A stretch of DNA of 64,000 nucleotides from a virus: positions 17,768 to 81,767 of the IMG/VR virus record IMGVR_UViG_3300033145_001320. One strand, written 5' to 3'. The position numbers and the translations under genes were made by a program. Under the pieces are notes generated by a model that was not told where the DNA came from, ran no database searches, and saw nothing but the letters and a program-made list of their open reading frames with translations. Positions 936-52,238 of this stretch are shown here, in pieces; position 1 is the stretch's first letter, and every line of letters begins with the position of its first letter.

Positions 936-954
936 TTTTAAATCTCCTTCGATT

Positions 955-12482: not shown

Positions 12483-12487
12483 CACTA

Positions 12488-13118: not shown

Positions 13119-13496
13119 CTATGGTCCGTCATAAAATTTATATTCAATATCTGATCCTGAAAAGAATTGGCTTATTGGTTCAGCAGTATCTTCCCAATAA
13201 AAGTGTACAGATTCCCCTCTAAGTAAGCCACTAACTATTGCTTTATATTCTTCTTCTGATAAATCTTTTAATTTCCCCTCTTTGTCCACATATTCTCTCC
13301 ACGGAGAGTCTGAATTTTCTATTTTTTCATATCTTTCTATAAATGTGTTAATATCCTCAAATGTAATGCTAACATTATCCATAAAATCAATAGTAGTTGT
13401 AACCTCCATAACTTTTCTATCAGGGACATCTCTTGAATCGAATACAATATAATTTGCTGAACTACTGTTAGTTATAAAATCAAGCTTGACTTTCAT
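13119..13496 (-). CDS. NSSS-leader protein 5, 125 aa
   Basis: This is an unknown protein starting MKVKLDFITNSSSANYIVF. It then has an EVTTTIDFMDNVSITFEDINTF segment and ends with HFYWEDTAEPISQFFSGSDIEY. It immediately follows the UvsW-like helicase gene (1-nt gap), so it is expressed with replication genes. The N-terminal 20 residues are the only part clearly shared with the other NSSS genes. Confidence 0.7.
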   Translation of the reverse strand: MKVKLDFITNSSSANYIVFDSRDVPDRKVMEVTTTIDFMDNVSITFEDINTFIERYEKIENSDSPWREYVDKEGKLKDLSEEEYKAIVSGLLRGESVHFYWEDTAEPISQFFSGSDIEYKFYDGP

Positions 13497-13497
13497 C

Positions 13498-14898
13498 TTA
13501 TCTTCCTTCTAAAATATCCAATGCAATTTGTTTATCTATTTTTTTCATTTGATTGTTTGTAAATAATATGTATTGGACATTCCATTGTTTGCTTTCATAA
13601 AAGTTTAATCGAGTATGTAAAGTCTTAGCTATTTCAGGACACCCATAATCAACCATATCAATTATTGCAGGAGTTAGTTTGTTTGGATATGTTCTCACAA
13701 CACGACCGCTTAACTGCTCAATGTTAGAGATTGGAGACGTCATTATAATTGCATCCTTCCACGGAGCATCAATCCCATCTCTACATTTTCCAGGTGTTGC
13801 AAATGTAAACCGTTTATTTAATTCAGCTAATGATGCTGATTTATAAAATTTTGATTTACTGTCAAATGGTAACCAATCATAAAGTTCATCAATCTGTTTT
13901 GTTCTTTCAAGTATCATAATTGTATTACGATCTGTTTTGAGTTTATTCATTAAACTCTTTGCCACTGTATCAAACGGTTTTGATTTCTTTATCATATTTA
14001 AATATCTTGCTCTTTGAAATTGACCGCCCCATCGAATGTATTTACTTCTTCCGGCCGAATCAATTAAATAATCAAGCATAACTACTGTAACATTTGCTGG
14101 CATTGTTCCCTCTGTATCATCGTCTTCGAATATATCACCAAGATGAAATTCAATAATATCTCCATTTCCATCATACCTATATGGAGTTGCACTTAATCCA
14201 TATACATATCTTGATGGCATGTGTATTGAACATTCCGAAAATGTTGGAGCTCCGACTGATGTATGAACTTCATCAGCGACAAATACTCCAATGTTTGCTT
14301 CATTCAATGCTATTAAAAATTCTTCTCGTTTTCTTTTTAATAATGACATGAACGTCTGTGTGGTCGCAATAATTATAGGATTTTCTAAATCCTTTTGAAA
14401 CGATGCAGATTTTAATCTAGAGATATCATCATATGATATATTTGTAAAGTCCATGAATCTTTGTCGCCATTGTTCTGCAAGACTATCCCGATGAACAAGG
14501 ATTAAACTTTTCTTTTTTCTTGTACCGATCATATAAATTGTTATAACAGTTTTTCCTACACCAGGTGATAATTGTAAAATACCTGATTCGTTTTCTAACA
14601 TGTATTGGATTGCTGCTTTTTGAGTTTGACTTCTCGGAGTAATGATATGTTCAATATCTATATCCTCTCCATCGTGTGTATAATCATCAACCTCATAATT
14701 AAAAGTATATTGTTGAAGTGGAAAGTTTCTTGGTATTAAAAGATACTTTTCCGATTCAATATAAAATGTATTAATAATGAATGATGATCTATTATACTCT
14801 TGAACCCTGCGCTGTAGGAACTCCCTGATTTTTATATAAAAATCTTCATACTGATATTTCTTTGGGATTAGCAATCCGGAGCGCTTTATAATTTTCAT
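13498..14898 (-). CDS. uvsW: UvsW-like SF2 DNA helicase
   Basis: The protein is 466 aa. Walker A is S111-PGVGKT117, the DEVH box is D209-EVH212, the SAT motif is S236-AT238, and a late SGRVVRT motif VI follows. An N-terminal domain of about 90 residues precedes the helicase core, as in T4 UvsW (about 500 aa), which unwinds branched DNA and R-loops during recombination-dependent replication. A generic type III restriction-like helicase is the alternative, but size and context with gp46/47 favour UvsW. Confidence 0.85.
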   Translation of the reverse strand: MKIIKRSGLLIPKKYQYEDFYIKIREFLQRRVQEYNRSSFIINTFYIESEKYLLIPRNFPLQQYTFNYEVDDYTHDGEDIDIEHIITPRSQTQKAAIQYMLENESGILQLSPGVGKTVITIYMIGTRKKKSLILVHRDSLAEQWRQRFMDFTNISYDDISRLKSASFQKDLENPIIIATTQTFMSLLKRKREEFLIALNEANIGVFVADEVHTSVGAPTFSECSIHMPSRYVYGLSATPYRYDGNGDIIEFHLGDIFEDDDTEGTMPANVTVVMLDYLIDSAGRSKYIRWGGQFQRARYLNMIKKSKPFDTVAKSLMNKLKTDRNTIMILERTKQIDELYDWLPFDSKSKFYKSASLAELNKRFTFATPGKCRDGIDAPWKDAIIMTSPISNIEQLSGRVVRTYPNKLTPAIIDMVDYGCPEIAKTLHTRLNFYESKQWNVQYILFTNNQMKKIDKQIALDILEGR

Positions 14899-15315
14899 TT
14901 ATTCTGTATAGGTTGCCTGTGAAGTATCTGTTTCATAAACTGTTATGTAATCCATCTGAACGGGTGATTTTAATTTTCTTTCAACGTGTACATAGATATC
15001 TTTTGCCATATTTTCTGCTGTTGGATCATAAGGTGAAGATACTATTTTTAAATCTGGCAACACATCAATTAACTTTTCAATCATTGGTTTATCAAGAGCA
15101 TTAATCATAAGAGCATGGTCAAACTTAATTATCATTTCATTTACAATATACTTCAGTTCTCCAAAATCCATAATCATGCCCGCATCATTTAGATGTTCGC
15201 TCTTTATTCCAACAATTACTTTATAATTATGACCATGGAAATTTTTACATAATCCTTTATGCCAACGAAGTCTGTGCCCCATTGCGAAGCTAAACTCTTT
15301 TGATATTTTATACAT
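14899..15315 (-). CDS. queD: QueD-like 6-carboxytetrahydropterin synthase
   Basis: The protein is 138 aa. Zinc-binding H14, H27 and H29 (AMGHRL, NFHGHNY), catalytic C23 (GLCKNFHGH), the MDFGELK segment (49-55), D66-H67 and a TAENMA motif near 114 match the QueD/PTPS family, which converts 7,8-dihydroneopterin triphosphate toward 7-deazaguanine. Phages use this pathway to make 7-deazaguanine DNA bases or to adjust host tRNA. The other pathway enzymes (FolE, QueE, QueC) are not in this window. It is spaced one nucleotide from the helicase start. Confidence 0.88.
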   Translation of the reverse strand: MYKISKEFSFAMGHRLRWHKGLCKNFHGHNYKVIVGIKSEHLNDAGMIMDFGELKYIVNEMIIKFDHALMINALDKPMIEKLIDVLPDLKIVSSPYDPTAENMAKDIYVHVERKLKSPVQMDYITVYETDTSQATYTE

Positions 15316-34023: not shown

Positions 34024-37000
34024 TTAATCCCTCGTCAACATTAATGATATAAAATATGAGTTTAATAAATCTCTTGCAGGTGATGTTTTTGGTTCACGAT
34101 ATTCGGCACCACCAGTTTTAATAATTTCTGCTAACATTTCTTCTTTTGTTATATAATCATCTGATAGTGGACCCATGAACTCTGCAAGCACGCTAGGACA
34201 GTTATAAGAAATGAATGAATAGGTATCAAGCTCTCCTAACCTCTGTCCTCCTTCACGCCTTTTACCAGCAGTAGGTTGTGCTGTTTTTCCTGTCATTGGT
34301 CCTGTTGAACGTCCGTATATTTTTGCATCGCCCATATGCTCCAACTTTGCTATATACATATAACCTACTGGAACAGCATGAGTAGTAGATGTATTATATT
34401 CAGGTAGTTTTAATTTATATGTTGATTTCAATCCAATAGATTTTAATGCATTTTCAATATCTTTATGACTTGGTGCTTTAAAAGGTGGAATAATAATTGG
34501 ATAGAATCCACTTTTCTTAATTTCAGCTATGAATTTAGTATATGCTGTTGCACTCAAACTTGATATATTCTTACCGAGTCTTTCTGTTGTTTCTTTATTT
34601 TTTGACTTATCTAAATGACCATATACTTTTTTAATTAAAGCAACAACTTGTGTTTTTGTTTTCAGAGTTGGAATGATTTTTCCAAGTTCTTTTGCTATTA
34701 GTCCACAATACATTTCATACAATTGCCCGATATTCATTCGACCTAATAACCCAAGAGGATTCAAAAGAATTTCAACACGGTCACCATTTGGCATTCTTGG
34801 CATCAATTCATCTTTTTCAATTATTGAAATGATACCCTTGTTTCCATAACGGTTGCAGAGTTTATCACTTACTTTAATATCTAACTCTTGTTCAATTTTA
34901 AATCGAATATAAACTCCCTTTATTGTTTCACCTTTATATGTAAATTTATCTTTTGGAAGTTTTGGATTTCGTTTGTTTGTCCTTGCAATGAGATCTTTTA
35001 ACATTGGAAATTTAGAATCACCAACATTAGAAAATATATCAATATCAACAATTCGACCACCCTGACTCTTTTTAATAAATTGACCTGAATGCATATCAGT
35101 AGTTTCATCTTCTTCAAAGCCAATAATATCTTCAACGTCTCCAAATGTCTTTCTTAATATTGGTTTTCCTTTTGCAATTGAATCGCCGACCTCTGCAATA
35201 TAAAGAAGTCTGTCATTTTCAGCAACTATAACTTCTTCTTCAATTCCATGAAGGGATGTTAGTTTTCCTTCTTTAGCAACACTCTCACTTATAACAGCAC
35301 CATCCTCAAAGTTATATCCTTTGTATGGCATTAAGGCAGCTAGTAATGGTCTACCTAATGCAATTGCACCATTAGACATACAAGCACCTTCTGCAATAAC
35401 TTGGTTTTCTTTGACTCTTTCATTCTTTTCAACAACAGGATTGAATACACTCAAGGTATTCTTTCCTGAACCAGAACGAAGATGTACAGGTGATATATCG
35501 ACCGTCTTAGACCCCTTAGAACCGCATTGAATCTTAATTGCATCCTTGGATATACTTAGTATCTTACCGTTGCATGGGGACCGCTTTACGAAGTTGTCAG
35601 ACAGAACGTCCGTAAGGATTGACTCGTATCCTGACTGTACAATAGGCGCTTGAGGATCCTTTAATGGAACCATCTGCTTTGCTTGATTTGCAAGCATTAT
35701 TATTCTAGCACCATCTACATTTTCAAGGAATGGCACCATTGATGTAGTCGTTGACAACATTCCTGATTTTTCGGTATTGGTTATATTTTTACTTGAGAAC
35801 ATGCCACGTGAAGATGAGATTAAAGCATCAATTGTTAGCTGTTGAGCAATACCAATATTATCACTTTCAGGAGTATCTAATGGATCAATATTTCCAAAAT
35901 AGCTTGGGTGAATATTACGAGCTATTGTTTGAATTGCTCTCTTATCAGGTATGCCGCCTACCTTTTGGCCAACAGGAGAAACTCGAGTCATAGTTGACAT
36001 CTCTTCAATTGGATTTGCGTATTCCATATCAACAACTAATTCTGTCATTAAGAAATCGCTTAATACTTTTGTTGATGGAATTTCAAATTGTGCTTGTTCA
36101 TTTCCTGATAATACTTGTTCTTTATACACTGTATATGCAGCAAGAATTTGTTTCTGTGTTAAATGAACCAATACTTCTGAATTTCTAATACGTTGATTTG
36201 ATAAATCATTACGTTCAATGACATATCCTTGTACAACTTTATCAGCCATATAGTTCATAATCAAATCAAGACTAGTTGGAAACTGTTGACTTTTCAATAC
36301 TTGCTTTGCAACAGGATCAACAATATTTTGTAAGTTTGAACTGATTAAGAATGTTGAGTTCATTCTTCCAGTTAGACTAATAATTAAATCTTCAAAGTAT
36401 TCTTTTGATGGAAATTCTTTTTCAATTGTATATTGTTCTGGTTTCCCATGTATAAAACCTACAACCATTTGCTCTTGAAGTTCAGTGTTTATATTTTTAA
36501 ATACACAATACTGCCCTTCTTTGATTTTAGCAAAATACTTTTCACCTGTTGGTTTTGTATCAACAATTTCATATTTTATTTTGTATTGGTTACATGTTTT
36601 TTCAAAACCAAAACTAAATGATAATAAGAAAAACAAAGGCATTTTATATGACATAAATGCTTCTAGATATTTAACACGTCTTAAACTTTTAACATAGATT
36701 CTAAATACAGAATATGAACTTTCGAATCGTGAATGTCCTGGTTTCGGAAACGTTATCGGATTCTGTACAATTTGATTAACAAGACATTTTTGTTTTCCAT
36801 TTAATCTAAAGACTCCTGTACTTGGATTAATACGTGGAAGTTCTAGTTTGATATTATGTACATTGCCAAATTGATCTTTCAATGTAACGGTTGCAATGTT
36901 AATATCTGATTTTAATATTTCTCCAGCTCGTCCTGGTTTATGAGAAATAGAAAATTTTTCAAACTTCAATGGAAGATCTTTTGATTCCAATACCTTAAAT

Positions 37001-38112
37001 GAACTAATCAAATCTTTTCTTAGATTTGTTTCAAAGTCTAACTGTCTTTTCTTAAATATATGTTTTGGAGCTTTTCCGTCAACCATCTTTACAGGATCGT
37101 ATGTTTTGATGGTTTCGTTTATTGCTAAACTTTCTGCTTTTGTAGGAGGAATTATATCCCCCGCTAATGTTGAACTGATTGCAGTTAAAGCTTTTGTTTT
37201 CCCTTTAGCTGGAATTTTCTTTGCAATAGCTGTAGCTCTGTTTATATCTCCACTAGTTCCATATAAAATAGAAGATGTTGCAATGGTTTTAATTTCATCT
37301 GCATTTGCATCACCAGAGACAATTTTTGTAACCTCATCAGGATCTTTTTGTAAGTATGTTTGGATTGCTCCTTTTATGCTAGCTACATTTTTTGAGTCAA
37401 TATTTTTATCGAGTACTTTCATTATAATTTTTGTAGCTTTATTTGTTTCTGTTTCTTGTTCTGTATCAGTCAGGACACCTTTTAAATTTCTTACATAATG
37501 AAGTACTCTTTGAAATGTAAATTCTCCATCCTTTACAAGAAGTCTATAATTTGATTTTCCATTAGTTACTGTATTCAATATCATATCATCAAATAGAAAA
37601 CTTCCATCTTTCATATCACGAACAATTGGAAATATCTTTCTATTGACAAATGTATTAACTTCTCTATTTAAATCTATAGAATATAAAAGAATTTTTTGAT
37701 AGTTGTCTGGGAACTGTGCAGTTGCTGTCTTTAAAATATTTTTTAATAGAAACCCAGCTCTTTGTCTGTAGTTGGTTGGTTTATGCATTACATCAATAGC
37801 ATTTGTGTATTGTGATAAATCAAGGATAACGTTTTTTCCTGGTGGGACTTTTTGGTTGGCTGCATATGGTATTAATTTTAAAGCACGATATGCTCTCACA
37901 AGATCAGGAGTCATTCTTGTTCTTGGAACTGTTGTCAATGGAACTGATACATTCTTAAAATCAATCTTCCTCAAATTCATTTTCGCATAATCTTCAATAA
38001 AATTTGAGTTCTCAGGAAAATATATTAAAAGAAACGGTTCTTTTATATCCTGTGGAAATCTAACTCCATCAACAATATGTGTATATTGTCTCCAATTTTT
38101 AAATTGAATCAT
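34024..38112 (-). CDS. DNA-directed RNA polymerase beta subunit (undivided)
   Basis: The protein is 1362 aa, comparable to E. coli RpoB (1342). Diagnostic segments are in order: IHPSYFGNIDPLDTPESDNIG, ALMPYKGYNFEDGAVISE, DKLCNRYGNKGIISII, PNGDRVEILLNPLGLLGRMNIGQ and GRSTGPMTGKTAQPTAGKRREGGQRLGE, all core elements of the beta family (active-site and switch regions). It is one chain, whereas phiKZ-group jumbo phages have beta split into two or more proteins. The beta' gene is 2 nt upstream. With no alpha, omega or sigma gene in the window, it may be a two-subunit core or use partners encoded elsewhere. Confidence 0.93.
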   Translation of the reverse strand: MIQFKNWRQYTHIVDGVRFPQDIKEPFLLIYFPENSNFIEDYAKMNLRKIDFKNVSVPLTTVPRTRMTPDLVRAYRALKLIPYAANQKVPPGKNVILDLSQYTNAIDVMHKPTNYRQRAGFLLKNILKTATAQFPDNYQKILLYSIDLNREVNTFVNRKIFPIVRDMKDGSFLFDDMILNTVTNGKSNYRLLVKDGEFTFQRVLHYVRNLKGVLTDTEQETETNKATKIIMKVLDKNIDSKNVASIKGAIQTYLQKDPDEVTKIVSGDANADEIKTIATSSILYGTSGDINRATAIAKKIPAKGKTKALTAISSTLAGDIIPPTKAESLAINETIKTYDPVKMVDGKAPKHIFKKRQLDFETNLRKDLISSFKVLESKDLPLKFEKFSISHKPGRAGEILKSDINIATVTLKDQFGNVHNIKLELPRINPSTGVFRLNGKQKCLVNQIVQNPITFPKPGHSRFESSYSVFRIYVKSLRRVKYLEAFMSYKMPLFFLLSFSFGFEKTCNQYKIKYEIVDTKPTGEKYFAKIKEGQYCVFKNINTELQEQMVVGFIHGKPEQYTIEKEFPSKEYFEDLIISLTGRMNSTFLISSNLQNIVDPVAKQVLKSQQFPTSLDLIMNYMADKVVQGYVIERNDLSNQRIRNSEVLVHLTQKQILAAYTVYKEQVLSGNEQAQFEIPSTKVLSDFLMTELVVDMEYANPIEEMSTMTRVSPVGQKVGGIPDKRAIQTIARNIHPSYFGNIDPLDTPESDNIGIAQQLTIDALISSSRGMFSSKNITNTEKSGMLSTTTSMVPFLENVDGARIIMLANQAKQMVPLKDPQAPIVQSGYESILTDVLSDNFVKRSPCNGKILSISKDAIKIQCGSKGSKTVDISPVHLRSGSGKNTLSVFNPVVEKNERVKENQVIAEGACMSNGAIALGRPLLAALMPYKGYNFEDGAVISESVAKEGKLTSLHGIEEEVIVAENDRLLYIAEVGDSIAKGKPILRKTFGDVEDIIGFEEDETTDMHSGQFIKKSQGGRIVDIDIFSNVGDSKFPMLKDLIARTNKRNPKLPKDKFTYKGETIKGVYIRFKIEQELDIKVSDKLCNRYGNKGIISIIEKDELMPRMPNGDRVEILLNPLGLLGRMNIGQLYEMYCGLIAKELGKIIPTLKTKTQVVALIKKVYGHLDKSKNKETTERLGKNISSLSATAYTKFIAEIKKSGFYPIIIPPFKAPSHKDIENALKSIGLKSTYKLKLPEYNTSTTHAVPVGYMYIAKLEHMGDAKIYGRSTGPMTGKTAQPTAGKRREGGQRLGELDTYSFISYNCPSVLAEFMGPLSDDYITKEEMLAEIIKTGGAEYREPKTSPARDLLNSYFISLMLTRD

Positions 38113-38114
38113 TC

Positions 38115-41100
38115 TTATCTCCTACGTTTTTTAGTTTCAACCAATGTTCCTGTAAGGACTTTTTCAAGAATACTTGGGTCACCACCATCATCTGTAATGA
38201 GTCCAGTTTTTATAGCTTCGTTTACATTTTCGAATGCCAGTCCCTGGATAAAACTTGTTTTGAATACAATTTGTTTTATGTTAATCATTGTGGGATCCCA
38301 TTTCTGTCCAAGTCTTGCTGGAATGCTTTGATTCTTTTTATCTCTCAATGCTTGTGATAATAAGACTTCAAGGTGTACAGAATCCATATTTCTCAATGTT
38401 CCATAAACAGCAAACAGTTTTAAGAATAAATGATTTGCATCTTTATAGATTTCTCGACCACCTAATAAACGTCTTACATATTGAATTTGTGCTTTTGTAT
38501 CGTCAGTCTGTATTGGTATTTCTAATACAGTACTATTTGCTTCATATGATATCTTTGTAAATTCTTTTCCTACTTTTTCATCATTATATGTTTTTAGAAT
38601 GGCTGGATAATCTAATATAATATTAAAAATAGAATCATCATATTCAACCTTACATACTAATGCTTTAACAATAATTTCATTATCAATTTCATTATAAACT
38701 AAATCATCAGGTAAAGGATAATCTTCTTTATTTAAAGTCAGTACCATAGGACGTTTTGTAAATAATTCAGTATTATTCTGACCCAAATTTTTCATGATAT
38801 TTTCTTTTGTGGTTAATGGATCGTTTTGAATAATGTCATATCTGATATCTCTATCTTTAATCTTTACTGCTCCACCTGTATGGAATGATTTCATGATTGT
38901 TTGTGTACCTGCTTCTCCAACAAGCTGTGCTGCTAAAACTCCAACGTAAGGACTTTTGTGTCGTTTTAATAAATCACCATAACAAGTATGACATAATTTA
39001 GTAGACTCACATAATATAGGACTTCTTAAATTAACAACATCTCCAACTTTTGTTTTACCTGGATCAAATCTTTCAACAGAATTTCCATTTAGGATATATC
39101 TACCTGTGAATATTCCTTTCATTTCTTTTGTCATTCTGAAACTCAAATGACGTTTTGTTTTGCAATCTTTTAAACTCCTATCAATTTCAACAGTATTTAA
39201 AACATATGCAAGCTGGCGTGACATATAACCTGTATCAGCAGTATTTAAAACACGATCAATTATACCTTTTCTTGAACCAGATGCTGCTGTAAAATATTCT
39301 TTATTTGTTAGACCATCTGCAAACGAACCTTTAATTGCAGGAAGCACTTTTCCAGTTGGATCAGCAATCAATCCTTTTGCAACTAAAATTTGCATTGGTT
39401 GAGTCCATCCTTTTCCAGATCCAGATTGGACCAGATCATATAGTCCTGTACCCTTTAAATGTTCAACTAATAATTTTTCCATCTCTTCTAACAATACGGC
39501 AGCTTCTTCTGTTGTTGCACCATCTAACTTTTTCTTTAATTGTAGAATTGATGTTGGTAATTGAATATCATCTAATGTTATACTTGGTGAAGAAATTGTT
39601 GCAAATTTAAAACCTATTGTTTTCAATGCTGAGAATGTATTGATTGCTTGTTCACGCCCATACATTTCAAGAATTACAGGAATAAGACCATTTACAATTT
39701 TGCTATTAACTTCTTGATCAATAAAAGGATACGATAGTGGGAATGTACTATTGAATATTGCTTTTCCCATAGTTGTAGTTTTCCCACGATATTTAACAGG
39801 GATATATGGATCAGATGCATTTTGTAAATCTGTATTAGTAACAGAAATGGGTGGTGCTGTTCTTTTGACATTTTTTGTGATTGTATATAAACCAACACAC
39901 ATTTCTTTTGACAACTCAAATGTTACGGCAGTGGCAGAGTCTCCACTTTCTCCATTCATCATTTTACTTATAACTTCAGCTTGTGCTTCAGTTGTTATAG
40001 GATGATAAATTGCCATTGTGTCTCCATCAAAATCAGCATTGAATCCGCCTACTTGGAGAGTACATAATCGTACTGTATTTCCATCAACTAAAATTGGTTT
40101 GAATCCACGAACAGATTCAGGTCGAAGTGCAGGATCACGTTTTGCTAATACACTACGATTCATCATTGCTACTTCTGCCGCATCCCATATAATTTTATAT
40201 AACTCTGGTGGAAGAACATCTCCACTTCCTACAGCTTTAAATACAGATTTAATACTATCAATTGATAATTCTAATTCTGTATGCTTTGTTACAGCTGCTG
40301 CTAATTTTGCTTGATCTACTTGACCAGAATAAAACAACCGATGAATAATAAAAGGTTCAAACAAACTTATTGCTAACCTTAACGGGATACCAATCTCATT
40401 TACTTTTAAGTCTGGACCAGGCGTAATAACAGCGCGACCAGAAAAGTCTGTACGTTTGGCTAATAGACTTGAACGAATCAACCCATTCTTCTTTTGAATT
40501 AATTTACGAATGAATCCATCATGGGCAATTACTGCCTTTTGAAGTTCATAATTTAAAAGATCGAATAAAGGTCCTGATTTAGATGCACTCTTAATTTGAT
40601 ATGCTCGTCTAATTAAAGAAATGTAATGATCATTTATTGGATCGTATATCCACATTCCTTTCTCATCCTGATATGCATCACGTTGTTCGGGTGGAATGAC
40701 AGGAACTGTATCAATAAATAGATTGTTTTCTTTTATAGATTGTTTTATCTTTTTAATGAATTTATCTCTAGTTTCTGTCCCGCCTCTAAATTTTATCTTT
40801 GGTAGAATCTTAATAAACTCTGAAATGCCTGTTACTCCATCAGGGTCAGTAATCAATAATCCTTGTGAATTAACTTTATATGTTTCCTCAGTTGATAGGA
40901 ATTTTTCAATCTTTCTATCTAGCTGAAGTAATAACATATATGCTGATGGATGAATAACTAATGCATTTAGTTTAATATATGAAAATGTCTTTTTACGATC
41001 TGTAGACTCTTCTGGACCAAAAATAATTTCTGAAAACAACCCCTCAGGATGCCATTCGCCTGGCTTTGAGAAAAACTCTGTTGTAGTAACAGGAGTAAGT

Positions 41101-41138
41101 CCTTGTTTGAACTTTTTGATATCCAAAAATTGTATCAT
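38115..41138 (-). CDS. DNA-directed RNA polymerase beta' subunit (undivided, compact)
   Basis: The protein is 1007 aa versus about 1400 in E. coli RpoC. The catalytic Mg-binding N367-ADFDGD373 (D369, D371, D373) is intact. Upstream are TDFSGRAVITPGPDLKVNEIGIPLRLA; downstream are the ASGSRKGIIDRVLNTADTGYMSRQL bridge-helix region, a CESTKLCHTCYGDL cysteine cluster and the LVGEAGTQTIMKSFHTGG trigger-region end. It lacks the N-terminal zinc finger length of the bacterial form. It starts with MIQF like the beta subunit and is preceded by the 153-aa gene. It should transcribe phage promoters such as the 22-nt motif. Confidence 0.94.
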   Translation of the reverse strand: MIQFLDIKKFKQGLTPVTTTEFFSKPGEWHPEGLFSEIIFGPEESTDRKKTFSYIKLNALVIHPSAYMLLLQLDRKIEKFLSTEETYKVNSQGLLITDPDGVTGISEFIKILPKIKFRGGTETRDKFIKKIKQSIKENNLFIDTVPVIPPEQRDAYQDEKGMWIYDPINDHYISLIRRAYQIKSASKSGPLFDLLNYELQKAVIAHDGFIRKLIQKKNGLIRSSLLAKRTDFSGRAVITPGPDLKVNEIGIPLRLAISLFEPFIIHRLFYSGQVDQAKLAAAVTKHTELELSIDSIKSVFKAVGSGDVLPPELYKIIWDAAEVAMMNRSVLAKRDPALRPESVRGFKPILVDGNTVRLCTLQVGGFNADFDGDTMAIYHPITTEAQAEVISKMMNGESGDSATAVTFELSKEMCVGLYTITKNVKRTAPPISVTNTDLQNASDPYIPVKYRGKTTTMGKAIFNSTFPLSYPFIDQEVNSKIVNGLIPVILEMYGREQAINTFSALKTIGFKFATISSPSITLDDIQLPTSILQLKKKLDGATTEEAAVLLEEMEKLLVEHLKGTGLYDLVQSGSGKGWTQPMQILVAKGLIADPTGKVLPAIKGSFADGLTNKEYFTAASGSRKGIIDRVLNTADTGYMSRQLAYVLNTVEIDRSLKDCKTKRHLSFRMTKEMKGIFTGRYILNGNSVERFDPGKTKVGDVVNLRSPILCESTKLCHTCYGDLLKRHKSPYVGVLAAQLVGEAGTQTIMKSFHTGGAVKIKDRDIRYDIIQNDPLTTKENIMKNLGQNNTELFTKRPMVLTLNKEDYPLPDDLVYNEIDNEIIVKALVCKVEYDDSIFNIILDYPAILKTYNDEKVGKEFTKISYEANSTVLEIPIQTDDTKAQIQYVRRLLGGREIYKDANHLFLKLFAVYGTLRNMDSVHLEVLLSQALRDKKNQSIPARLGQKWDPTMINIKQIVFKTSFIQGLAFENVNEAIKTGLITDDGGDPSILEKVLTGTLVETKKRRR

Positions 41139-43296: not shown

Positions 43297-43318
43297 ATTC
43301 AATAATTAATATATATAG
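43297..43318 (-). promoter_or_regulatory. Putative phage promoter, copy 2
   Basis: Minus strand CTATATATATTAATTATTGAAT, the same element as at 33093 and 47051. It points to the 482-aa gene and its structured leader and follows the kinase gene stop at 43338. Confidence 0.72.
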
Positions 43319-43337: not shown

Positions 43338-44249
43338 TTATTTTTCAATGATATGTTTAAAGGGTTTCATAAAAAGTCTCTTTGATACAACAGTTGTCCC
43401 TGGTTGAGTAACAACATCCTGAGCACATCTATTTGCATGTCTTGCCGCATCCAATTCTTTTACTCCCATTGCAATACATACTGACATAACAGCAACAACT
43501 GTATCCCCTGCACCAGAAACATTATAAATTTCAACTGGTTCCGCAGGGATGCGCCAATAATAATCACCTCCAGATTTAATCAATGTCATTCCATCTTTTC
43601 CCTTTGTTACAAGAAAGAATTGAACATCAGTTAGTATATATGAAGAAGAAACTTGCATAGTATCCCATTCTTTTTCATTTGGGGTCATCATATAAACACC
43701 ATTATACATATAAGCATTAATGGGTTTTGGATCAACAATTATTTTTACATTTTTTGATTTTAAATAAACCATCAAGTCTTCTGTGATCATACCTTTTGCA
43801 TAATCCGAAATGACAATCATATCATAATCATTAATGTTTATACTTTCAAGTCTTTTGATAGCTGATTCAGCTTTAACAGGTCTAATTGTTTCCCGATCTA
43901 TTCTCAACATTTGAACTTGTCTTTGATCTGAAATGATTCTTTCTTTGGCTATTGTTTGATAAGAACCCATTAATATTAGATTGGTATTTACTCCAATGTG
44001 ATTAAGTTCATCCAAAACTTTTTTACCATCACGGTCACCTCCAATTGAAGCTAGGCAATCAACCGTTGCGCCTAGTTCTCTTATGTTTCTTGCAACATTA
44101 CCACACCCTCCAAGAGTATGATATTCCTCAGAAACATTAACAATAGGAACTGGTGCTTCAGGTGAAATTCTTGATACATCTCCAACAACATATTTGTCAA
44201 GCATGATATCGCCAACAACTAAAATTCTAACATCCTCTGGGGTTTTCAT
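43338..44249 (-). CDS. PfkB-family kinase resembling HldE/RfaE heptose kinase domain
   Basis: The protein is 303 aa. Matching features of the heptose-7-phosphate kinase half of HldE are VVGDIMLDKYVVGDVSRISPEAPVPIV (11-38), GGCGNVARNI (47-56), ISDYAKGM near 148-154 and the catalytic GAGDT with D249. The cytidylyl/adenylyl half of HldE is absent. HldA/HldE enzymes feed ADP-heptose into LPS. In a phage it could modify the host surface or make heptose-phosphate signals or modified nucleotides. It follows a terminator and precedes promoter copy 2, so it may be expressed by readthrough. Confidence 0.82.
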   Translation of the reverse strand: MKTPEDVRILVVGDIMLDKYVVGDVSRISPEAPVPIVNVSEEYHTLGGCGNVARNIRELGATVDCLASIGGDRDGKKVLDELNHIGVNTNLILMGSYQTIAKERIISDQRQVQMLRIDRETIRPVKAESAIKRLESININDYDMIVISDYAKGMITEDLMVYLKSKNVKIIVDPKPINAYMYNGVYMMTPNEKEWDTMQVSSSYILTDVQFFLVTKGKDGMTLIKSGGDYYWRIPAEPVEIYNVSGAGDTVVAVMSVCIAMGVKELDAARHANRCAQDVVTQPGTTVVSKRLFMKPFKHIIEK

Positions 44250-44274: not shown

Positions 44275-44311
44275 AAAAAAAGAGTGAGGATAACTATCAT
44301 CCCCACTCTTT
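44275..44311 (-). terminator. Rho-independent terminator of the exported-protein operon
   Basis: On the minus strand AAAGAGTGGGGAT, 7-nt loop, ATCCTCACTCTTT (13 bp with one G-U) continues into TTTTTGTAATA. It follows the end of the 44345-45059 gene. Confidence 0.85.
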
Positions 44312-44344
44312 ATTATGTTCTAACTACTGGTAAAATCGACCGGT

Positions 44345-44719
44345 CTATCTGGTCATTTTCTTCTTTACGGGTTGTTCAAGGTCGTAATCAACCAGAGCAA
44401 AACCTTGCAACCAGGGTAGATCTCTTGTTCCAGCTTGGGCACTTGAATATCCCATGCCGCTGGAACTTACATTTGTGTGACCTGCACCATTGACCTGAGC
44501 TTGAGTCGTATTAAGACCAACGCCCCAACCAGATGAGAACACATCACGTACAGCACCCTGAGCTGTGAAATGAATCACGTTGGCGCCTGCTTCTAATGCT
44601 TCCTTAGCAGCTGCGGCCATAACTTCAACCATAGTTGCATTTCGGCCATCGGACTTGGCAGTAACATAACCCGATTTTGATATACCGAGTGTCGCCGTTT
44701 TCTCTGCGGGTCGGTGCAT
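44345..44719 (-). CDS. C-terminal piece of a frameshifted exported protein
   Basis: This is a 124-aa ORF whose first residues (MHRP) are probably out of frame. From AEKTATLGISKSGYVTAKSD on it continues the exported protein encoded by 44625-45059 if one C is removed from the CCC run at 44708-44710. It has an Ala-rich helix VMAAAAKEALEAGANVIHF near 34-52 and then Gly/Ser-rich sequence ending in a basic tail (VKKKMTR). The function is unknown. The terminator follows. Confidence 0.6.
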   Translation of the reverse strand: MHRPAEKTATLGISKSGYVTAKSDGRNATMVEVMAAAAKEALEAGANVIHFTAQGAVRDVFSSGWGVGLNTTQAQVNGAGHTNVSSSGMGYSSAQAGTRDLPWLQGFALVDYDLEQPVKKKMTR

Positions 44720-45059
44720 CGTTGTAAGTAAGATCAGCTATTTCAAGTTCGGCCTCAGCATCATCAAAACCCTTGAGTATACTGTCCAAAGCACCATCGC
44801 TAAACCAACATACATACATCAGTATGGTTTCAACGGGCTGGAATCCTTCACTCGGTAATGGTTTGCCGAAGTAGTTAATGGCCGGACCGTATGCAGCACC
44901 ACCGGGAATCGGGGCGGCAATACTTGTATTGTAAGAGTTAATGGGACCCTGAGTTATATCAGCATCAGACACAGCATCAGCGTCACTATCAGCCATGGCC
45001 GGGATTGCAAACAGAATGAACATTGCTGCAATTACACTTACGAAAATATTTTTCATCAT
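44625..45059 (-). CDS. Exported protein, N-terminal piece (frameshifted)
   Basis: It has a Sec signal peptide (MMKNIFVSVIAAMFILFAIPAMA, predicted cut after AMA) followed by an acidic DSDADAVSDAD and a stretch with VETILMYVCWFSDG. The reading is good to about LTYNDAPT; the last 30 residues (RRENGDTRYIKIG...) look out of frame. Joined to 44345-44719 the product would be about 238 aa. It shares the operon with three other secreted proteins. The role is unknown. Confidence 0.65.
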   Translation of the reverse strand: MMKNIFVSVIAAMFILFAIPAMADSDADAVSDADITQGPINSYNTSIAAPIPGGAAYGPAINYFGKPLPSEGFQPVETILMYVCWFSDGALDSILKGFDDAEAELEIADLTYNDAPTRRENGDTRYIKIGLCYCQVRWPKCNYG

Positions 45060-45099
45060 TATTTTTTGAACTCCTGTATTTAGGTGTTTATATTTTAAA

Positions 45100-45133
45100 G
45101 AATGTGACAGATAAATATTTATCTGTCACATTC
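45100..45133 (-). terminator. Perfect 34-nt palindrome, probable attenuator
   Basis: GAATGTGACAGATAAAT with its exact complement (17 bp, no spare loop bases) lies between two exported-protein genes; on the minus strand it is followed by TTTAAAATATAAAC. It may reduce transcription into the downstream gene or bind a dimeric protein. Confidence 0.65.
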
Positions 45134-45157
45134 AACATAAGTCAATCAAATCTGATA

Positions 45158-46075
45158 TTACCTGGGGTCACCTATTGACCCGTTAACTGTTGCTTGTGAA
45201 GAACCATGAACAGATATTACAGTCATGTTACCGGTCGTAGATATATTCCCATTTAGAGAAGCATTACCAGAACCTGAAACTCCACCGTTATAAGAGAAAG
45301 TGGTGGTACCGCCGGCAAAGCTATTTCCATTAGTAATTATACCACTGACCATACCAGAACCGGACACATTTGAAGCTACCAGATTCTTAGCATTTGTAGT
45401 AACACTATTTTGAGCATAACCGGAGATGCTTACACCCGGATTGATTGTAACAATGCTACTACCTTGGGTAGAAATTCCACCACTCAAACAATCAGCGCCG
45501 ATTGCAAGACCGCGTCCAGAAGCATAGTCACTACTTTCGTTCATGAAATAACCATTACTCATTTGCTGGGCACCGATACCACTTCCATTAGGGTATCCAA
45601 TTTCGTTGACCCAGGTTTCCTGAGCAACGTTCCCACTAACACTGAGGTTAGTAACTACGGTTTCACGATCTCCACACAATCCAAGAGCAAGGCCGCCACC
45701 AATAATATGGCCATTGGTTGCTGCACTCGCTTCCGCTGCTGATGTATAACCGGAATCATTTACATCTGTCTTGGCACTGGACTCATCCATTCCTGTGAGA
45801 CCGCCTGTCTCATATGCATATCCGGGAATCGTAAAACACCAAATTTTAATCGGCGCTGCTGAGGCCGATGTGGCAACTGTTCCATATGCAATACCGTTCG
45901 ACGAGGCGATGGCACCATCATTACCTGGGGTTTTACTGGAATAATCGTCAGATGCTGCTCCACCTTCATAAAAACCGGTAACGGTTGCATTACCAGATCC
46001 ACCACCTGCGATTGCCAAACTACCAAAACTGAACATCAGTCCTGCTGCGATTAACGCAATAATTCTTTTCTTCAT
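45158..46075 (-). CDS. Exported Gly/Ser/Asn-rich protein, 305 aa
   Basis: It has a Sec signal peptide (MKKRIIALIAAGLMFSFGSLAIA, cut after about residue 23). The mature part is rich in Gly, Ser, Asn, Thr with repeated SGxGNxSxxGN-like phrases toward the C-terminus (YNGGVSGSGNASLNGNIS...), like beta-solenoid or fibre proteins, and contains only a few Cys (IWCFTIP, GLCGDR, ADCLSGG) that could form disulphides after export. No family is recognised. AAGGAG site. Confidence 0.75.
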   Translation of the reverse strand: MKKRIIALIAAGLMFSFGSLAIAGGGSGNATVTGFYEGGAASDDYSSKTPGNDGAIASSNGIAYGTVATSASAAPIKIWCFTIPGYAYETGGLTGMDESSAKTDVNDSGYTSAAEASAATNGHIIGGGLALGLCGDRETVVTNLSVSGNVAQETWVNEIGYPNGSGIGAQQMSNGYFMNESSDYASGRGLAIGADCLSGGISTQGSSIVTINPGVSISGYAQNSVTTNAKNLVASNVSGSGMVSGIITNGNSFAGGTTTFSYNGGVSGSGNASLNGNISTTGNMTVISVHGSSQATVNGSIGDPR

Positions 46076-46172
46076 TTTAAAACTCCTTGCTATTTAAGGT
46101 TTATGTTTCAATTTGTTATAAGCTTATACTAAATTCCTACTTCCATGCAGACCTCATGATTAGTCTGCGGCA

Positions 46173-46430
46173 TCAGTTCTTTTGACGATCTGATACTTCT
46201 TTGATACGATCCTCTGTTGCCGGAGTAATCGCACCTTCTTCAACTCTATCCTGAATGTTCGTTTCATTATCAGATGTTTCTTTGGGTGGTTCTGCTGTCC
46301 AGAGATAATGGGGACCAAGCAATTCCGGTGATACAATTGTATTTGGAATCGGGGTCTTTTCATCATCTGCAAAAGCAATCCCAGTGATAATAAAGCATAC
46401 AAGCATTAATGCAACAGCGATCTTCTTCAC
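46173..46430 (-). CDS. Small exported protein, 85 aa
   Basis: GTG start at 46430 with AAAGGAGGTGAGATC upstream. The signal peptide MKKIAVALMLVCFIITGIAFA is followed by an acidic, Pro-rich mature part of 64 residues (DDEKTPIPNTIVSPELLGPHYLW..., then VEEGAITPATEDRIKEV). The mature part is probably flexible. The function is unknown. It is the second gene of the exported-protein operon. Confidence 0.7.
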   Translation of the reverse strand: MKKIAVALMLVCFIITGIAFADDEKTPIPNTIVSPELLGPHYLWTAEPPKETSDNETNIQDRVEEGAITPATEDRIKEVSDRQKN

Positions 46431-46447
46431 GATCTCACCTCCTTTCT

Positions 46448-46981
46448 TTAATTGGTTAATCTATAATTGATATTCCCGAAATGCATAATTGGGAAATTAT
46501 CAACTGTAACTAAGTCCACTCCATATTGAATCTTGCCTATATCTTCTTTATGGAATGGAAGGTTAATTATAAACTGTCTGTAAGGCAAATCGCTTATACC
46601 CACAACCTTCCTGTTATATTTTGCATAACTTTCATGTTTCTTCATAGTCGTAATTTTTTCAACAAGTTTATACTCTATACGCTTCGGATTTCTAACTTCA
46701 ATCGTAAGGCATACATGTGAATATTTTTTCATTGAAAATTTATAATCCTTGGTATAAGGAATGAAGGTTGGATGTTGAATAATTGACCCATCTAAATCTT
46801 GTTTCGATTTAAATGTTGCCCAATATGATACTGTTTGAATGTTTAAATCAGATGTGCTCATTAACATATAATGAGGAGTTGGTATTTGTCTTCCGGTTGG
46901 ATCAATTAGTTGAATGTTTTTGACACCGCATCCTGAAAATAACAAGATGCTCAATAATAAGATACCCCAATATTTTAACAT
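46448..46981 (-). CDS. Lipoprotein, 177 aa
   Basis: The ATG at 46981 is chosen because AAAGGA lies 6 nt upstream; an upstream TTG would add 11 residues without a site. The signal MLKYWGILLLSILLFSGC has a clear lipobox L-F-S-G-C18. The mature part is a beta-rich domain (QTVSYWATFKSKQDL, CLTIEVRNPKRIEYKLVEKI, YRQFIINLPFHKED). As a phage-encoded lipoprotein it could block superinfection at the host envelope, a known use of phage lipoproteins; no specific family is recognised. It is the first gene after promoter copy 3. Confidence 0.75.
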   Translation of the reverse strand: MLKYWGILLLSILLFSGCGVKNIQLIDPTGRQIPTPHYMLMSTSDLNIQTVSYWATFKSKQDLDGSIIQHPTFIPYTKDYKFSMKKYSHVCLTIEVRNPKRIEYKLVEKITTMKKHESYAKYNRKVVGISDLPYRQFIINLPFHKEDIGKIQYGVDLVTVDNFPIMHFGNINYRLTN

Positions 46982-47050
46982 TTTACATCCTTTCATTTTT
47001 ATAGGTTGATTCAATAGTTATAAAAAATTAACGAAATACCCTTCATTATT

Positions 47051-47072
47051 ATTCACTAATTAATATATATAG
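47051..47072 (-). promoter_or_regulatory. Putative phage promoter, copy 3
   Basis: Minus strand CTATATATATTAATTAGTGAAT. It lies about 70 nt upstream of the lipoprotein start and heads the exported-protein operon. Confidence 0.72.
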
Positions 47073-47092: not shown

Positions 47093-47809
47093 TTACTTAA
47101 AAGATAGTAAAGTTTCTAATGTAATAGTTGAATGGATACTTTTGGATCTGTTTAATTGTTTTGGAATGACTTGTAAATTTTTATGGTGAGCTATTTTATT
47201 TGGAGGGATATTATTCAAAAACCCATCATATATAGAATATATATGATCTAATTCATAATTATATTTATTCCCTCTTAAGTTGAGGTTGTTTATTTTAAAA
47301 AAATATTTTTTTAAAGTTTTGTAAGTTTCTCGATGCACTAATGAAGAATATCGTTTGAATTTTTCAAGTTGTTTAGGATCAACTTTTCTATCAAATTCTT
47401 CACATTTATCTTTACAAATTTCTGAGCAATAGAAATAGCTATTCCCGCTCACTTCATAATTTCGATCAAATCTTCTTAATCTTTCATATAATTGTGATCT
47501 TGTTGGTGTAAAATATTTATCACAGAATTTACATTTTACTTTAATTTGTCCATTTTCAAATTTTGGATTTTCTTCCTTAATAAAGGTTGGGTATTTTTCT
47601 TTATATTCTTCTATTGTGTATATTCTTGATTTGCTTACTGCTTTTGCATTTTTTCTAACTCGTTCATCAGTTTCTTTTGTCAGTCCTTTATTCCATGTAC
47701 TTTTTCCTTTTCTTACTTTTTTAAAATGTTTGCTTCTCTGTTCTCTCAAAAGTTTAGCTTTTTCAGGACCATGAATTTTTTCATATGTTTTTCCTTTTAA
47801 CGATGCCAT
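47093..47809 (-). CDS. HNH-type homing endonuclease, 238 aa
   Basis: Its start is KGKTYEKIHGPEKAKLLREQRSK (NUMOD3-like basic repeats), then a zinc element (CKFCDKYFTP...YFYCSEICKDKC) like that of the 16930 gene, and a C-terminal HNH variant YELDHIYSIYDGF...HHKNLQVIPKQLNRSK. This last arrangement is common in phage homing nucleases. It shares a TAATG overlap with the amidase gene upstream. Confidence 0.78.
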   Translation of the reverse strand: MASLKGKTYEKIHGPEKAKLLREQRSKHFKKVRKGKSTWNKGLTKETDERVRKNAKAVSKSRIYTIEEYKEKYPTFIKEENPKFENGQIKVKCKFCDKYFTPTRSQLYERLRRFDRNYEVSGNSYFYCSEICKDKCEEFDRKVDPKQLEKFKRYSSLVHRETYKTLKKYFFKINNLNLRGNKYNYELDHIYSIYDGFLNNIPPNKIAHHKNLQVIPKQLNRSKSIHSTITLETLLSFK

Positions 47810-48327
47810 TATTTAATTACAAACCTTCTTACTTGTGTAATAAGTCTATCTTTATCAAAAAACTCTCCGGGACAATATACATCTTTATCTGTTGATACTT
47901 CTTTATGAAGTTTAATTTTACTTGGTGTGATGTTAAACATTTTCATCATTGGATTTACTAATCTGTAAGCCATAATTTCATATAATCGTTTTGGTGGGAT
48001 TTTAAAATCATAATTACCTAAAATACTAATATGAATCGCTCTCGAATTTATTTCATCTGGAATTGAATCCCACTCACAAAGATATGGATATGGACGAGTT
48101 GCAATAGCTACGTAATCTTCTTTAATCTTTTCAATAACATAATGATAATTTACATCGCCTTGTTTTAATTCTAATACTCCTTTAAATATTCCAGGCATTT
48201 GATATTTCGGATTGTCAATACGTGCTTCAGGATTCTTATACATTTCTGCCGTATGATGTATGATAATCCACTTGACCGACTGTCGTCTTATCTTTAATAA
48301 AGAAGGTCTTAAAATAATTTTGGCCAT
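47809..48327 (-). CDS. N-acetylmuramoyl-L-alanine amidase (Amidase_2), lysin
   Basis: The protein is 172 aa. The zinc ligands are in IIIHHTA (H24 or H25), a later LHKEVSTDKD histidine and the CPG motif (YCPGEFF), with YHYVIEK and ILGNYDF between, matching Amidase_2/PGRP-type peptidoglycan amidases. There is no signal peptide or wall-binding domain. It is next to tail-tip genes, so it may be a virion-associated or a lysis amidase. Confidence 0.8.
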   Translation of the reverse strand: MAKIILRPSLLKIRRQSVKWIIIHHTAEMYKNPEARIDNPKYQMPGIFKGVLELKQGDVNYHYVIEKIKEDYVAIATRPYPYLCEWDSIPDEINSRAIHISILGNYDFKIPPKRLYEIMAYRLVNPMMKMFNITPSKIKLHKEVSTDKDVYCPGEFFDKDRLITQVRRFVIK

Positions 48328-49593: not shown

Positions 49594-51234
49594 CTATGAT
49601 ATGTTTTCAAGTATTCTATCAACTTCTGTGTTTGTTACTGGAGGCCATTTCTTAATAGCTTGTCTTAGTGCTTCCTTCATGAGAGCGGGAATTATAGTTG
49701 TGTCGCTTATCCATTCAGATGAAGGTATTTTATCTGAATATGTAACTCCTACATTACCAAAATTGTCTCTGAATATAGGTCTAAATCTTCCAGTAGTCAA
49801 GTTTCTTATACTAAGATTACCAGACATAAATCCTCCAACTGCCCAATAATTATGTTTCACTCCATCTATCATTTTTTCTTTTAGTTCATGCACCAATGAA
49901 TAAACATATGTTGAAATATCTACAGTTAGTTGGTCGGGGGAAGGTAAATCTATAATAATTTTCCATACCAAATGATTATATGCATCTGACATAAAAACTG
50001 GTTTCCATGATCTGTTTGGATCATAGTCAGTATAATTGTTAGCATATTTAGTATAAAACAATCCCTGATCTACAACATATTTAGCTAATGCTACTTTCGG
50101 AGGTGGTGGATCAGGTGGCTCGCCAGGTGTTACTAATACTGGTTGATAAGGTTCTGGTGCCGGCATCTCTACTAATCTTGCTGGAGTACTTCCTGAATCT
50201 GGTTTTACAAATACAGTTTTTGAATTATCTTCCATGTATTGTTTTTTTATAGCTATAGAATCAGATTGTGTTTTGCCCATTGCAGATGATTCAACCGTTA
50301 ATGTGTTTGCTCCCATTTTTACTGCTGCCTGTGTATTGCCTTGACTTTTTGCTTGAAGATTCATACCCTTTTTAATGTTACTTGCTTTAATTGGATCAAC
50401 ACCAAGTAAAAATTTATCAATATCAAATTCTCCATAATTTGATTTGGCTGGATCACTGTGTAACCCAACTGTGTCATAAAAACAATCAAGTTCTGCTGTC
50501 ATGCCATCAACTTGATCTGCAAAAGCAGAACCTCCAATTGAATTAGTACATTCGACCATTGAGTCCATCATTTTTAAACTTTTTGCTACGTCACTAACAA
50601 CTGTTTTCCTTATATTGACTTCACTAAATCCTGAAGGGATTACATCACTTGCTGCTTCAGCAGGATCTGTAACTGATGTTTTCGGAATACTATTTGAAGG
50701 TCGTGGTGCGCCAGCTAGAGTATCTAGTTCAGCACCAAGTCCTAATTCTTCAAAAGGTACACCCGGAAATTCTTTTTTCATTTCGTCAATTACATCATTA
50801 ACTACCTGTGTAGTATTTGTACTTGCTCCTGCATTTAAAGCATCAGTTAACTTACCTGGTTCTGAAAACTTTGGAACTTCCGTAGCATAAGATGCGAAGA
50901 AACTACATTTGTTAATTGTATCTGTTATATTGTTCGCCAGCGCATCAGAGGTTGCCCACGCCGAACTTCCATACGCAGCATCTAATGAATTTACCATCAT
51001 CGAATTAATAACGGTGGGTGGACTTGTTTTACAGTTGGTTATTCTTGATTTTATATCACTTAACTGTCCTTCTAACTCACTACATTTACTAGTCAAAGGA
51101 CCCATAAAAGAATCAAATTCATCAACTAATGTATTAGCAACAGAAGCATCAAATGCACCTGTTGAATCATAAACAATAATAGTAGTTGTATCATAGAAAG
51201 ATGTTGTGTCAATGTATGCTGTTGAGTCTGCCAT
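49594..51234 (-). CDS. Tail/baseplate structural protein, 546 aa
   Basis: The N-terminus is beta/Thr-rich (STAYIDTTSFYDTTTIIVYD), the middle has helical stretches and a Pro-rich linker (EPYQPVLVTPGEPPDPPPP), and the C-terminal 150 residues look folded (SWKPVFMSDAYNHLVWKIIIDLP, PALMKEALRQAIKKWPP). It is unrecognised but sits between the PAAR and gp5-like genes with a shared TAATG, so it is probably part of the tail tip or baseplate. Confidence 0.6.
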   Translation of the reverse strand: MADSTAYIDTTSFYDTTTIIVYDSTGAFDASVANTLVDEFDSFMGPLTSKCSELEGQLSDIKSRITNCKTSPPTVINSMMVNSLDAAYGSSAWATSDALANNITDTINKCSFFASYATEVPKFSEPGKLTDALNAGASTNTTQVVNDVIDEMKKEFPGVPFEELGLGAELDTLAGAPRPSNSIPKTSVTDPAEAASDVIPSGFSEVNIRKTVVSDVAKSLKMMDSMVECTNSIGGSAFADQVDGMTAELDCFYDTVGLHSDPAKSNYGEFDIDKFLLGVDPIKASNIKKGMNLQAKSQGNTQAAVKMGANTLTVESSAMGKTQSDSIAIKKQYMEDNSKTVFVKPDSGSTPARLVEMPAPEPYQPVLVTPGEPPDPPPPKVALAKYVVDQGLFYTKYANNYTDYDPNRSWKPVFMSDAYNHLVWKIIIDLPSPDQLTVDISTYVYSLVHELKEKMIDGVKHNYWAVGGFMSGNLSIRNLTTGRFRPIFRDNFGNVGVTYSDKIPSSEWISDTTIIPALMKEALRQAIKKWPPVTNTEVDRILENIS

Positions 51235-52238
51235 TATAATTCTCTACTCCCATCTGGATTTGATGGTGAAGCAGGAGTTGCATCAACAGTGGTTGCAGGT
51301 GGTGGGGTTGATGCTCCTGAATTATCTTGAATAGTAGGGGATGCATCTCTAGCAATCATACCACCAGATTGAGTATGCATATCTCCAGCAGATTGCACAT
51401 ACAGTTCATCTCCAACCTTTGTAATTTTTGTCCCACCTACTTCTTCAATAGCATGAGATCCACTTTTTACATTATATTCACCTGATGATTGACTGTTGAT
51501 TGTACCTCCAGATAAGAAATTAATATCTTTTGTTGCTGTAAGATACATTGCACCTCCAGATAAAAAATGTTGATCTCCACTGGTTGTTACTAATAAGTGA
51601 CCACCTGATTTTATATGAATATCACTAGCCACTTGTATTTCAATAGTTCTATCATCAATGTCTAATTTAATAAAGTCGCCTTTATATGTTTTGATTAATA
51701 ATTTTTGTTTGTCAACTCTTTCATCAAGTAATATTGTGGTTTGATTATCTTCAATTTCAAATACAGAAACTGTATCTCCAGAAGGAGGATTTGTCAGCTT
51801 TCTTTTTCTACCTGTTATTTCAGTCCTTTCATCATCGGGATCATCAGAGACAACAATTGCTCTACCGTCTCCACTTTTAATTAATGTCCATTTATTTTCA
51901 AAATTTGATCCTACCTGATTTTCCGGTAAGACTTTTGTATTTTCTAAATCTAGTGCACCAAAATAATATGGTCTGTTAATATTACCACCTTCAAAAAATA
52001 CAAAAACCCAAGCCCCTTTTTGTGGAATGTATGATGATCCAGCATAGTAGTTATCCATATTATCTTCTTTATTTCTTCCACCAAGAGGATTGTTTGCGGG
52101 TCTTGCCCAAATTCCTTTTGTTCTGTCAACCTCAGGCATAAAATCAGGAATGTGTACAAGGACTCTACCGAACTGCTCTTTATCTTTATTGTTAACAACA
52201 ACAGCTCTATAGTTTCCAAATGCAGATGCTTTTTCCAT
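51234..52238 (-). CDS. gp5-like baseplate central spike protein
   Basis: The protein is 334 aa. An OB-fold N-terminus (NYRAVVVNNKDKEQFGRVLVHIPDFM) and the segment KGIWARPANNPLGGR...WVFVFFEGGNINRPYYFGAL match gp5/VgrG-type OB domains. From about 190 the sequence has triple beta-helix repeats (HIKSGGHLLVTTSGDQHFLSGG...). No lysozyme domain is inserted, in contrast with T4 gp5. It ends with a Pro/Ala tail. It forms the membrane-piercing needle under the PAAR tip. Confidence 0.88.
   Translation of the reverse strand: MEKASAFGNYRAVVVNNKDKEQFGRVLVHIPDFMPEVDRTKGIWARPANNPLGGRNKEDNMDNYYAGSSYIPQKGAWVFVFFEGGNINRPYYFGALDLENTKVLPENQVGSNFENKWTLIKSGDGRAIVVSDDPDDERTEITGRKRKLTNPPSGDTVSVFEIEDNQTTILLDERVDKQKLLIKTYKGDFIKLDIDDRTIEIQVASDIHIKSGGHLLVTTSGDQHFLSGGAMYLTATKDINFLSGGTINSQSSGEYNVKSGSHAIEEVGGTKITKVGDELYVQSAGDMHTQSGGMIARDASPTIQDNSGASTPPPATTVDATPASPSNPDGSREL

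What the first reader, a model, noticed from the sequence alone, without database searches (positions are those of the whole stretch)
44275..47072. Operon of four exported proteins bounded by a promoter and a terminator
A lipoprotein, a small secreted protein, a Gly/Ser-rich secreted protein and another secreted protein are expressed from promoter copy 3 and end at the terminator at 44275. None is a typical lysis or tail gene. A phage that exports several proteins through Sec probably remodels or blocks the host surface.
Basis: partly seen in the sequence, partly recalled or inferred. Interest (0 to 1): 0.7.

Follow-up and report, generated by a model that had tools for sequence, protein, structure and literature searches.

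The report
Four exported proteins in jumbo phages
A large bacterial virus and two relatives carry the same cassette of four fast-changing proteins of unknown family, each with an export signal, so they probably act on the outside of the infected bacterium; what they do there is not known, and in this copy the fourth gene is broken.

Summary
On the minus strand, four consecutive genes encode proteins with Sec-type signals: a lipoprotein, an 85-aa protein, a 305-aa Gly/Ser-rich protein and a fourth protein. They lie between a 22-bp motif (47051-47072; three exact copies in the window, 0.06 expected) and a terminator-like hairpin (44279-44311). Two corrections: the fourth gene is broken in this record (about 35 nt missing near 44672, so two frames; intact in both relatives), and a strong hairpin at 45100-45133 separates genes 3 and 4, so one transcript is not certain.

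Relatives make the case stronger. Jumbo-phage contig L003 has all four genes in the same order behind the same motif; contig L002, cut at its end, has the last two. No Pfam, NCBIfam, PHROGs or PADLOC family matches, and no bacterial homologue turned up. They diverge faster than most neighbours.

My best reading is an envelope-modifying cassette made early in infection. Superinfection exclusion, as by T5 Llp, is the likeliest role, but nothing tests it. L003 carries a c-di-GMP-I-GGC riboswitch just before the following kinase gene. That riboswitch class is common in Desulfobacterota and often precedes exported proteins there, which hints at host and theme. Both structure predictions failed.

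The parts
47051..47072 (-). Promoter-like motif CTATATATATTAATTAGTGAAT upstream of the cassette
   Evidence: Three exact copies in the window against 0.06 expected; more in two related phages, one just before the L003 lipoprotein gene. Function inferred.
46448..46981 (-). Gene 1: lipoprotein, 177 aa, lipobox LLFSG|C, residue +2 is Gly
   Evidence: homologue in L003 (33% in the alignment; 32%). No family match.
46173..46430 (-). Gene 2: small exported protein, 85 aa, GTG start after a strong ribosome-binding site
   Evidence: L003 counterpart by position, length and signal, only 18% identity.
45158..46075 (-). Gene 3: Gly/Ser/Asn/Ala-rich exported protein, 305 aa
   Evidence: full-length homologue in L003, C-terminal part in L002. 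GC 0.45 against about 0.31 around it.
45100..45133 (-). Perfect 17-bp inverted repeat (hairpin) between genes 3 and 4; possible terminator or mRNA stabiliser
   Evidence: z -5.4 against mononucleotide shuffles; hairpins of unrelated sequence at the same place in L003 and L002.
44625..45059 (-). Gene 4, 5' part: signal peptide and N-terminal half, runs out of frame near 44672
44345..44719 (-). Gene 4, 3' part in another frame; 65% identical to L002 over 103 residues
   Evidence: intact single frames in L002 711-1589 and L003 7979-8716.
44279..44311 (-). Intrinsic-terminator-like hairpin closing the cassette
   Evidence: a similar hairpin in L002. L003 has a c-di-GMP-I-GGC riboswitch plus a short terminator-like hairpin here.
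43338..44249 (-). Neighbour: PfkB/HldE-type sugar kinase (heptose-7-phosphate kinase-like), next to the cassette in all three phages; not exported
   Evidence: TIGR02198, E 3e-78, 263 bits against a cutoff of 345.

Best explanation
It is a phage envelope-modification cassette. From a phage-specific promoter, probably used early, the infected cell makes an outer-membrane lipoprotein and three other exported proteins. These leave through host Sec and coat or alter the cell envelope. The likeliest benefit is that the infected cell no longer takes up further phages, or progeny do not stick to debris, as with T5 Llp. Shown: signals, gene order in L003, shared motif, fast divergence. Inferred: outer-membrane location (no Asp after the lipid cysteine), early timing (the same motif precedes one of the phage's two RNA polymerase operons and no recognised virion gene, which resembles the phiKZ plan as I recall it), and the benefit itself.
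For: Four consecutive exported proteins among 70 window genes; outside them my heuristic finds only one other convincing signal. Same four-gene order in L003 and the last two genes in L002. Same motif upstream in L003. The three comparable products are 30-37% identical to L003, against about 60-75% for most neighbours, the pattern expected of host-facing proteins. No virion or lysis family match. The motif precedes the RNA polymerase operon in all three phages and lipoprotein, ATPase-like and other non-structural genes. Precedent: T5 and BF23 Llp lipoproteins block the receptor in infected cells (PMC4728585).
Against: No homologue of known function. Four proteins are more than a receptor blocker needs. 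Gene 4 is broken in this record, so it is dispensable here or the assembly is wrong. Timing is by analogy only. No receptor or host is identified.
Confidence: 0.4

Rival explanations
1. Matrix or adhesin cassette: the Gly/Ser-rich protein forms extracellular fibres or a coat, with the other exported proteins helping its secretion or anchoring, so infected cells stay attached or aggregated.
For: Gly/Ser/Asn/Ala-rich, strand-rich by a very low-confidence prediction. Raised GC and GC3 of genes 3 and 4 in all three phages could mean high expression. L003 holds a c-di-GMP-I-GGC riboswitch at the cassette's edge; in Desulfobacterota this class precedes exported proteins at most loci where a clear gene followed. 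Both phages encode a type IV prepilin-like protein.
Against: No curli or other adhesin family match. The L003 riboswitch precedes the kinase, not the secreted genes, and neither the window record nor L002's has one.
Confidence: 0.22
2. Lysis helpers: the lipoprotein and the small protein act as an outer/inner spanin-like pair near an endolysin-like amidase.
For: An Amidase_2 gene lies two genes upstream (47809-48327), and a lipoprotein gene sits directly before a small exported protein.
Against: No spanin family match. The small protein has a cleavable signal rather than an obvious membrane anchor. The lipoprotein is large. Genes 3 and 4 are unexplained. A separate promoter-like motif follows the amidase and an HNH gene.
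Confidence: 0.1
3. Host-benefit or moron genes taken from bacteria, with no role in the infection itself.
For: GC and GC3 of genes 3 and 4 are far above the phage average in all three phages.
Against: Same order and place in diverged phages behind the phage's own motif. No bacterial homologue among 395 genomes of one phylum or in the genome scan.
Confidence: 0.12
4. Virion or tail-associated proteins.
For: A baseplate gene lies about 4 kb upstream (51234-52238).
Against: Sec signals would send the products out of the cytoplasm, where virions assemble. Separate promoter-like motif. No tail family match.
Confidence: 0.06

Closest known systems
Llp receptor-blocking lipoproteins of T5 and BF23 (PMC4728585)
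   Same: Phage-encoded lipoprotein made in the infected cell; sequence diverges quickly between phages
   Different: Llp is a single protein beside the receptor-binding gene. Here four exported proteins stand beside a kinase and upstream of an RNA polymerase operon; no sequence similarity was found to any family searched, but T5 Llp itself was not compared
Phage spanins (Rz/Rz1 type)
   Same: A lipoprotein gene beside a small exported protein, near an endolysin-like gene
   Different: Large lipoprotein, cleavable signal on the small protein, two further exported proteins, no family match
Curli-type secreted fibre operons
   Same: Several exported proteins including a lipoprotein and a Gly/Ser/Asn-rich one
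   Different: No curli family match and no CsgG-like sequence
c-di-GMP-I-GGC riboswitch-controlled exported proteins of Desulfobacterota
   Same: In relative L003 this riboswitch class lies at the cassette's edge
   Different: It precedes the kinase gene, not the exported proteins, and is absent from the window and L002

Membership tests
Superinfection-exclusion lipoprotein (Llp type) | Lipobox-bearing signal peptide | tested here: met
   LLFSG|C in the window, FLVS|C in L003; heuristic, not SignalP
Superinfection-exclusion lipoprotein (Llp type) | Sequence family match | tested here: not met
   No phage record matched and no Pfam, NCBIfam or PHROGs family at a meaningful level; T5 Llp not compared directly
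Superinfection-exclusion lipoprotein (Llp type) | Binds a receptor and blocks adsorption | not testable with these tools
   Host and receptor unknown
Spanin pair | Outer-membrane lipoprotein beside a second small exported or membrane protein | tested here: met
   Genes 1 and 2 adjacent, 17 nt apart
Spanin pair | Inner partner keeps an N-terminal membrane anchor with a periplasmic coiled coil | tested here: inconclusive
   Small protein ends its hydrophobic stretch with AFA|D, as in a cleaved signal; no topology predictor was available
Spanin pair | Match to annotated spanin families | tested here: not met
Curli-type secretion | CsgG/CsgA/CsgE/CsgF family domains | tested here: not met
   Pfam scans
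c-di-GMP-I-GGC riboswitch (RF03167), L003 only | Covariance-model score above gathering threshold | tested here: met
   65.2 bits against 59, E 7e-13
HldE-type heptose-7-phosphate kinase (neighbour) | TIGR02198 score above the curated cutoff | tested here: not met
   263 against 345 bits; clear PfkB kinase, substrate unproven

The most novel reading that the evidence does not exclude
A jumbo phage lineage builds its own multi-protein surface layer or fibre on the infected cell early in infection, tied in some members to the host's c-di-GMP state, so the virus reads and rewrites the host's attached or free-living state.
Probability: 0.12. Interest if true: 0.85.

Novelty: new variant of a known kind. 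Interest (0 to 1): 0.45.

Why it matters
Known phage surface modifiers are mostly single small proteins. A conserved four-gene exported cassette with no known family, under the phage's own promoter motif and beside a c-di-GMP riboswitch in one relative, would widen what lytic jumbo phages are known to do to the outside of their host, and it gives a defined set of genes to test.

Tried and rejected
Structure prediction of genes 3 and 4 from three-sequence alignments failed (mean pLDDT 32 and 33), so no fold search was made. PDB sequence searches with genes 1 and 4 gave only chance hits. Searches for bacterial homologues of gene 4 and gene 3 found none: genome collection (gene 4), 25 mixed genomes (gene 4; one E 0.04 hit, not followed), 395 genomes of one phylum each; the single E 9e-4 hit lies on a spurious frame next to ABC-transporter genes and was rejected. 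These negatives have no positive control. The kinase gave no host: its best bacterial and archaeal relatives are only 31-43% identical and scattered over many phyla. The promoter motif was tested as a hairpin element; a few copies lie in inverted repeats but most do not. A programmed frameshift in gene 4 was considered and rejected as less likely than a deletion, because both intact relatives carry the missing stretch. Contig numbers were not found in the literature; papers on phiKZ promoters and phage heptose enzymes were not found.

Full report
What is there. The window is part of an 81.8-kb virus record. It encodes two sets of multi-subunit RNA polymerase genes, one in the window (34024-38112 and 38115-41138) and one in the record's first 17.8 kb (L095 10592-13594 and 13789-16497), a terminase and 7-deazaguanine-type enzymes, so it is a jumbo-phage fragment. 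Genes lie on the minus strand. At 46981-44345 stand a lipoprotein gene, a small exported protein gene, a Gly/Ser-rich exported protein gene and a fourth exported protein gene. Upstream is CTATATATATTAATTAGTGAAT at 47051-47072; the pattern has three exact copies in the window against 0.06 expected in shuffles. Downstream is a 15-pair hairpin followed by U at 44279-44311.

The fourth gene is split: the signal-bearing frame (44625-45059) loses homology after about 44672 and the rest continues in another frame (44345-44719). Against the intact L002 gene about 35 nt are absent at that point. This may be a real deletion or an assembly error. Between genes 3 and 4 lies a perfect 17-bp inverted repeat; L003 and L002 have strong hairpins of different sequence at the same place. 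It may end or stabilise part of the transcript, so a single operon is unproven.

Relatives. Only two related contigs were found among viral contigs. L003 (223-kb record) has amidase, HNH, motif, lipoprotein, small protein, Gly/Ser-rich protein, fourth protein, kinase in the window's order. L002 (101.6-kb record) starts inside the Gly/Ser-rich gene and then has the fourth gene and the kinase. The kinase is 57-60% identical and the 482-aa gene beyond it 74-82%, while the lipoprotein, Gly/Ser-rich protein and fourth protein are 30-37% identical to L003; the fourth protein is 58-65% identical to L002. The small protein is recognisable only by place, length and signal. Conserved order with fast sequence change argues for selected, host-facing proteins.

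Composition. Genes 3 and 4 have GC 0.43-0.54 in the three phages against 0.31-0.35 overall, and GC3 of the fourth gene is 0.335 in L003 and 0.58 in L002 against neighbours at mostly 0.11-0.29. Strong codon selection for expression or bacterial origin would both explain this; they were not separated.

Family searches. None of the four proteins, nor their intact relatives, matches a Pfam, NCBIfam, PHROGs or PADLOC family at a meaningful level, and no phage record or plasmid record matched those searched. Bacterial searches were empty but had no positive control. AlphaFold models were unusable.

Riboswitch. At the place where the window and L002 have the closing terminator, L003 has a c-di-GMP-I-GGC riboswitch (65.2 bits, threshold 59), followed by a short hairpin and U-run just before the kinase gene. 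It is absent from the window record and from L002's. In a sample of one phylum (that of a Desulfovibrionaceae genome) the class occurs in 49 of 118 genomes and in none of 14 control genomes under the same filters; at the loci fetched, where a clear gene followed, it mostly encodes an exported protein. This suggests, for L003 only, a Desulfobacterota-like host and a surface-related theme. It does not show that the exported cassette is under c-di-GMP control.

Timing. The motif also precedes the operon of one RNA polymerase set in all three phages, a lipoprotein gene, an ATPase-like gene and short unknown genes in L003's record, and no gene recognised as capsid or tail. In phiKZ, as I recall, polymerase genes of this kind are read early from AT-rich promoters by the virion polymerase. 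Early expression is therefore my inference, not a result.

Function. The cassette most likely changes the envelope of the infected cell. Among such roles superinfection exclusion has the clearest precedent, T5 Llp (PMC4728585). A matrix or adhesin role is the main rival; a spanin role for genes 1 and 2, host-benefit genes, and virion proteins are less likely. I give the exported, envelope-acting reading high weight and the exclusion reading about 0.4.

Noticed in passing
window 11837-12061 (-); L098 11373-11636 (-): A type IV prepilin-like protein (Pfam N_methyl, E 2.7e-9 and 4.8e-8; PHROGs pilin family in the window copy) next to SbcD in both phages, suggesting use of a host pilus or type II secretion apparatus.
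   Followed up: partly
window 32654-32728 (-): tRNA with anticodon TTA, which would read the stop codon TAA; the L002 counterpart at 13976-14048 appears to read TTG. TAA ends 48 of 70 window genes, so genome-wide recoding is unlikely.
   Followed up: partly
L003 8757-8831 (+): c-di-GMP-I-GGC riboswitch in a phage record, directly before a PfkB/HldE-type kinase gene.
   Followed up: partly
window 43338-44249 (-): Phage-encoded heptose-7-phosphate kinase-like gene kept beside the cassette in all three phages; the partner enzymes were not looked for.
   Followed up: partly
window 471-3247 (-): Adjacent genes for a small protein with weak TGS similarity, a ThiF-family protein and a Prok-JAB-domain protein, resembling a ubiquitin-like conjugation set.
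   Followed up: no
window 8232-8612, 12039-12491, 12760-13110, 13119-13496 (-): Several small proteins starting MK(V/F)K.DF..NSSS, a family repeated within the phage and in its relatives; no Pfam match for the one tested.
   Followed up: no
window 33093-33114, 43297-43318, 47051-47072 (-): Long promoter-like motif shared by three phages; a few copies in the relatives lie inside inverted repeats.
   Followed up: partly
window 29940-30908 (-): ARPP-1 domain protein (Pfam E 1.7e-21).
   Followed up: no
L095 9551-10405 (-); window 14899-15315 and 6550-7608 (-): FolE2 (Pfam E 6.5e-64) together with QueD-like and radical-SAM QueE-like genes judged by eye, suggesting 7-deazaguanine modification of phage DNA.
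   Followed up: no
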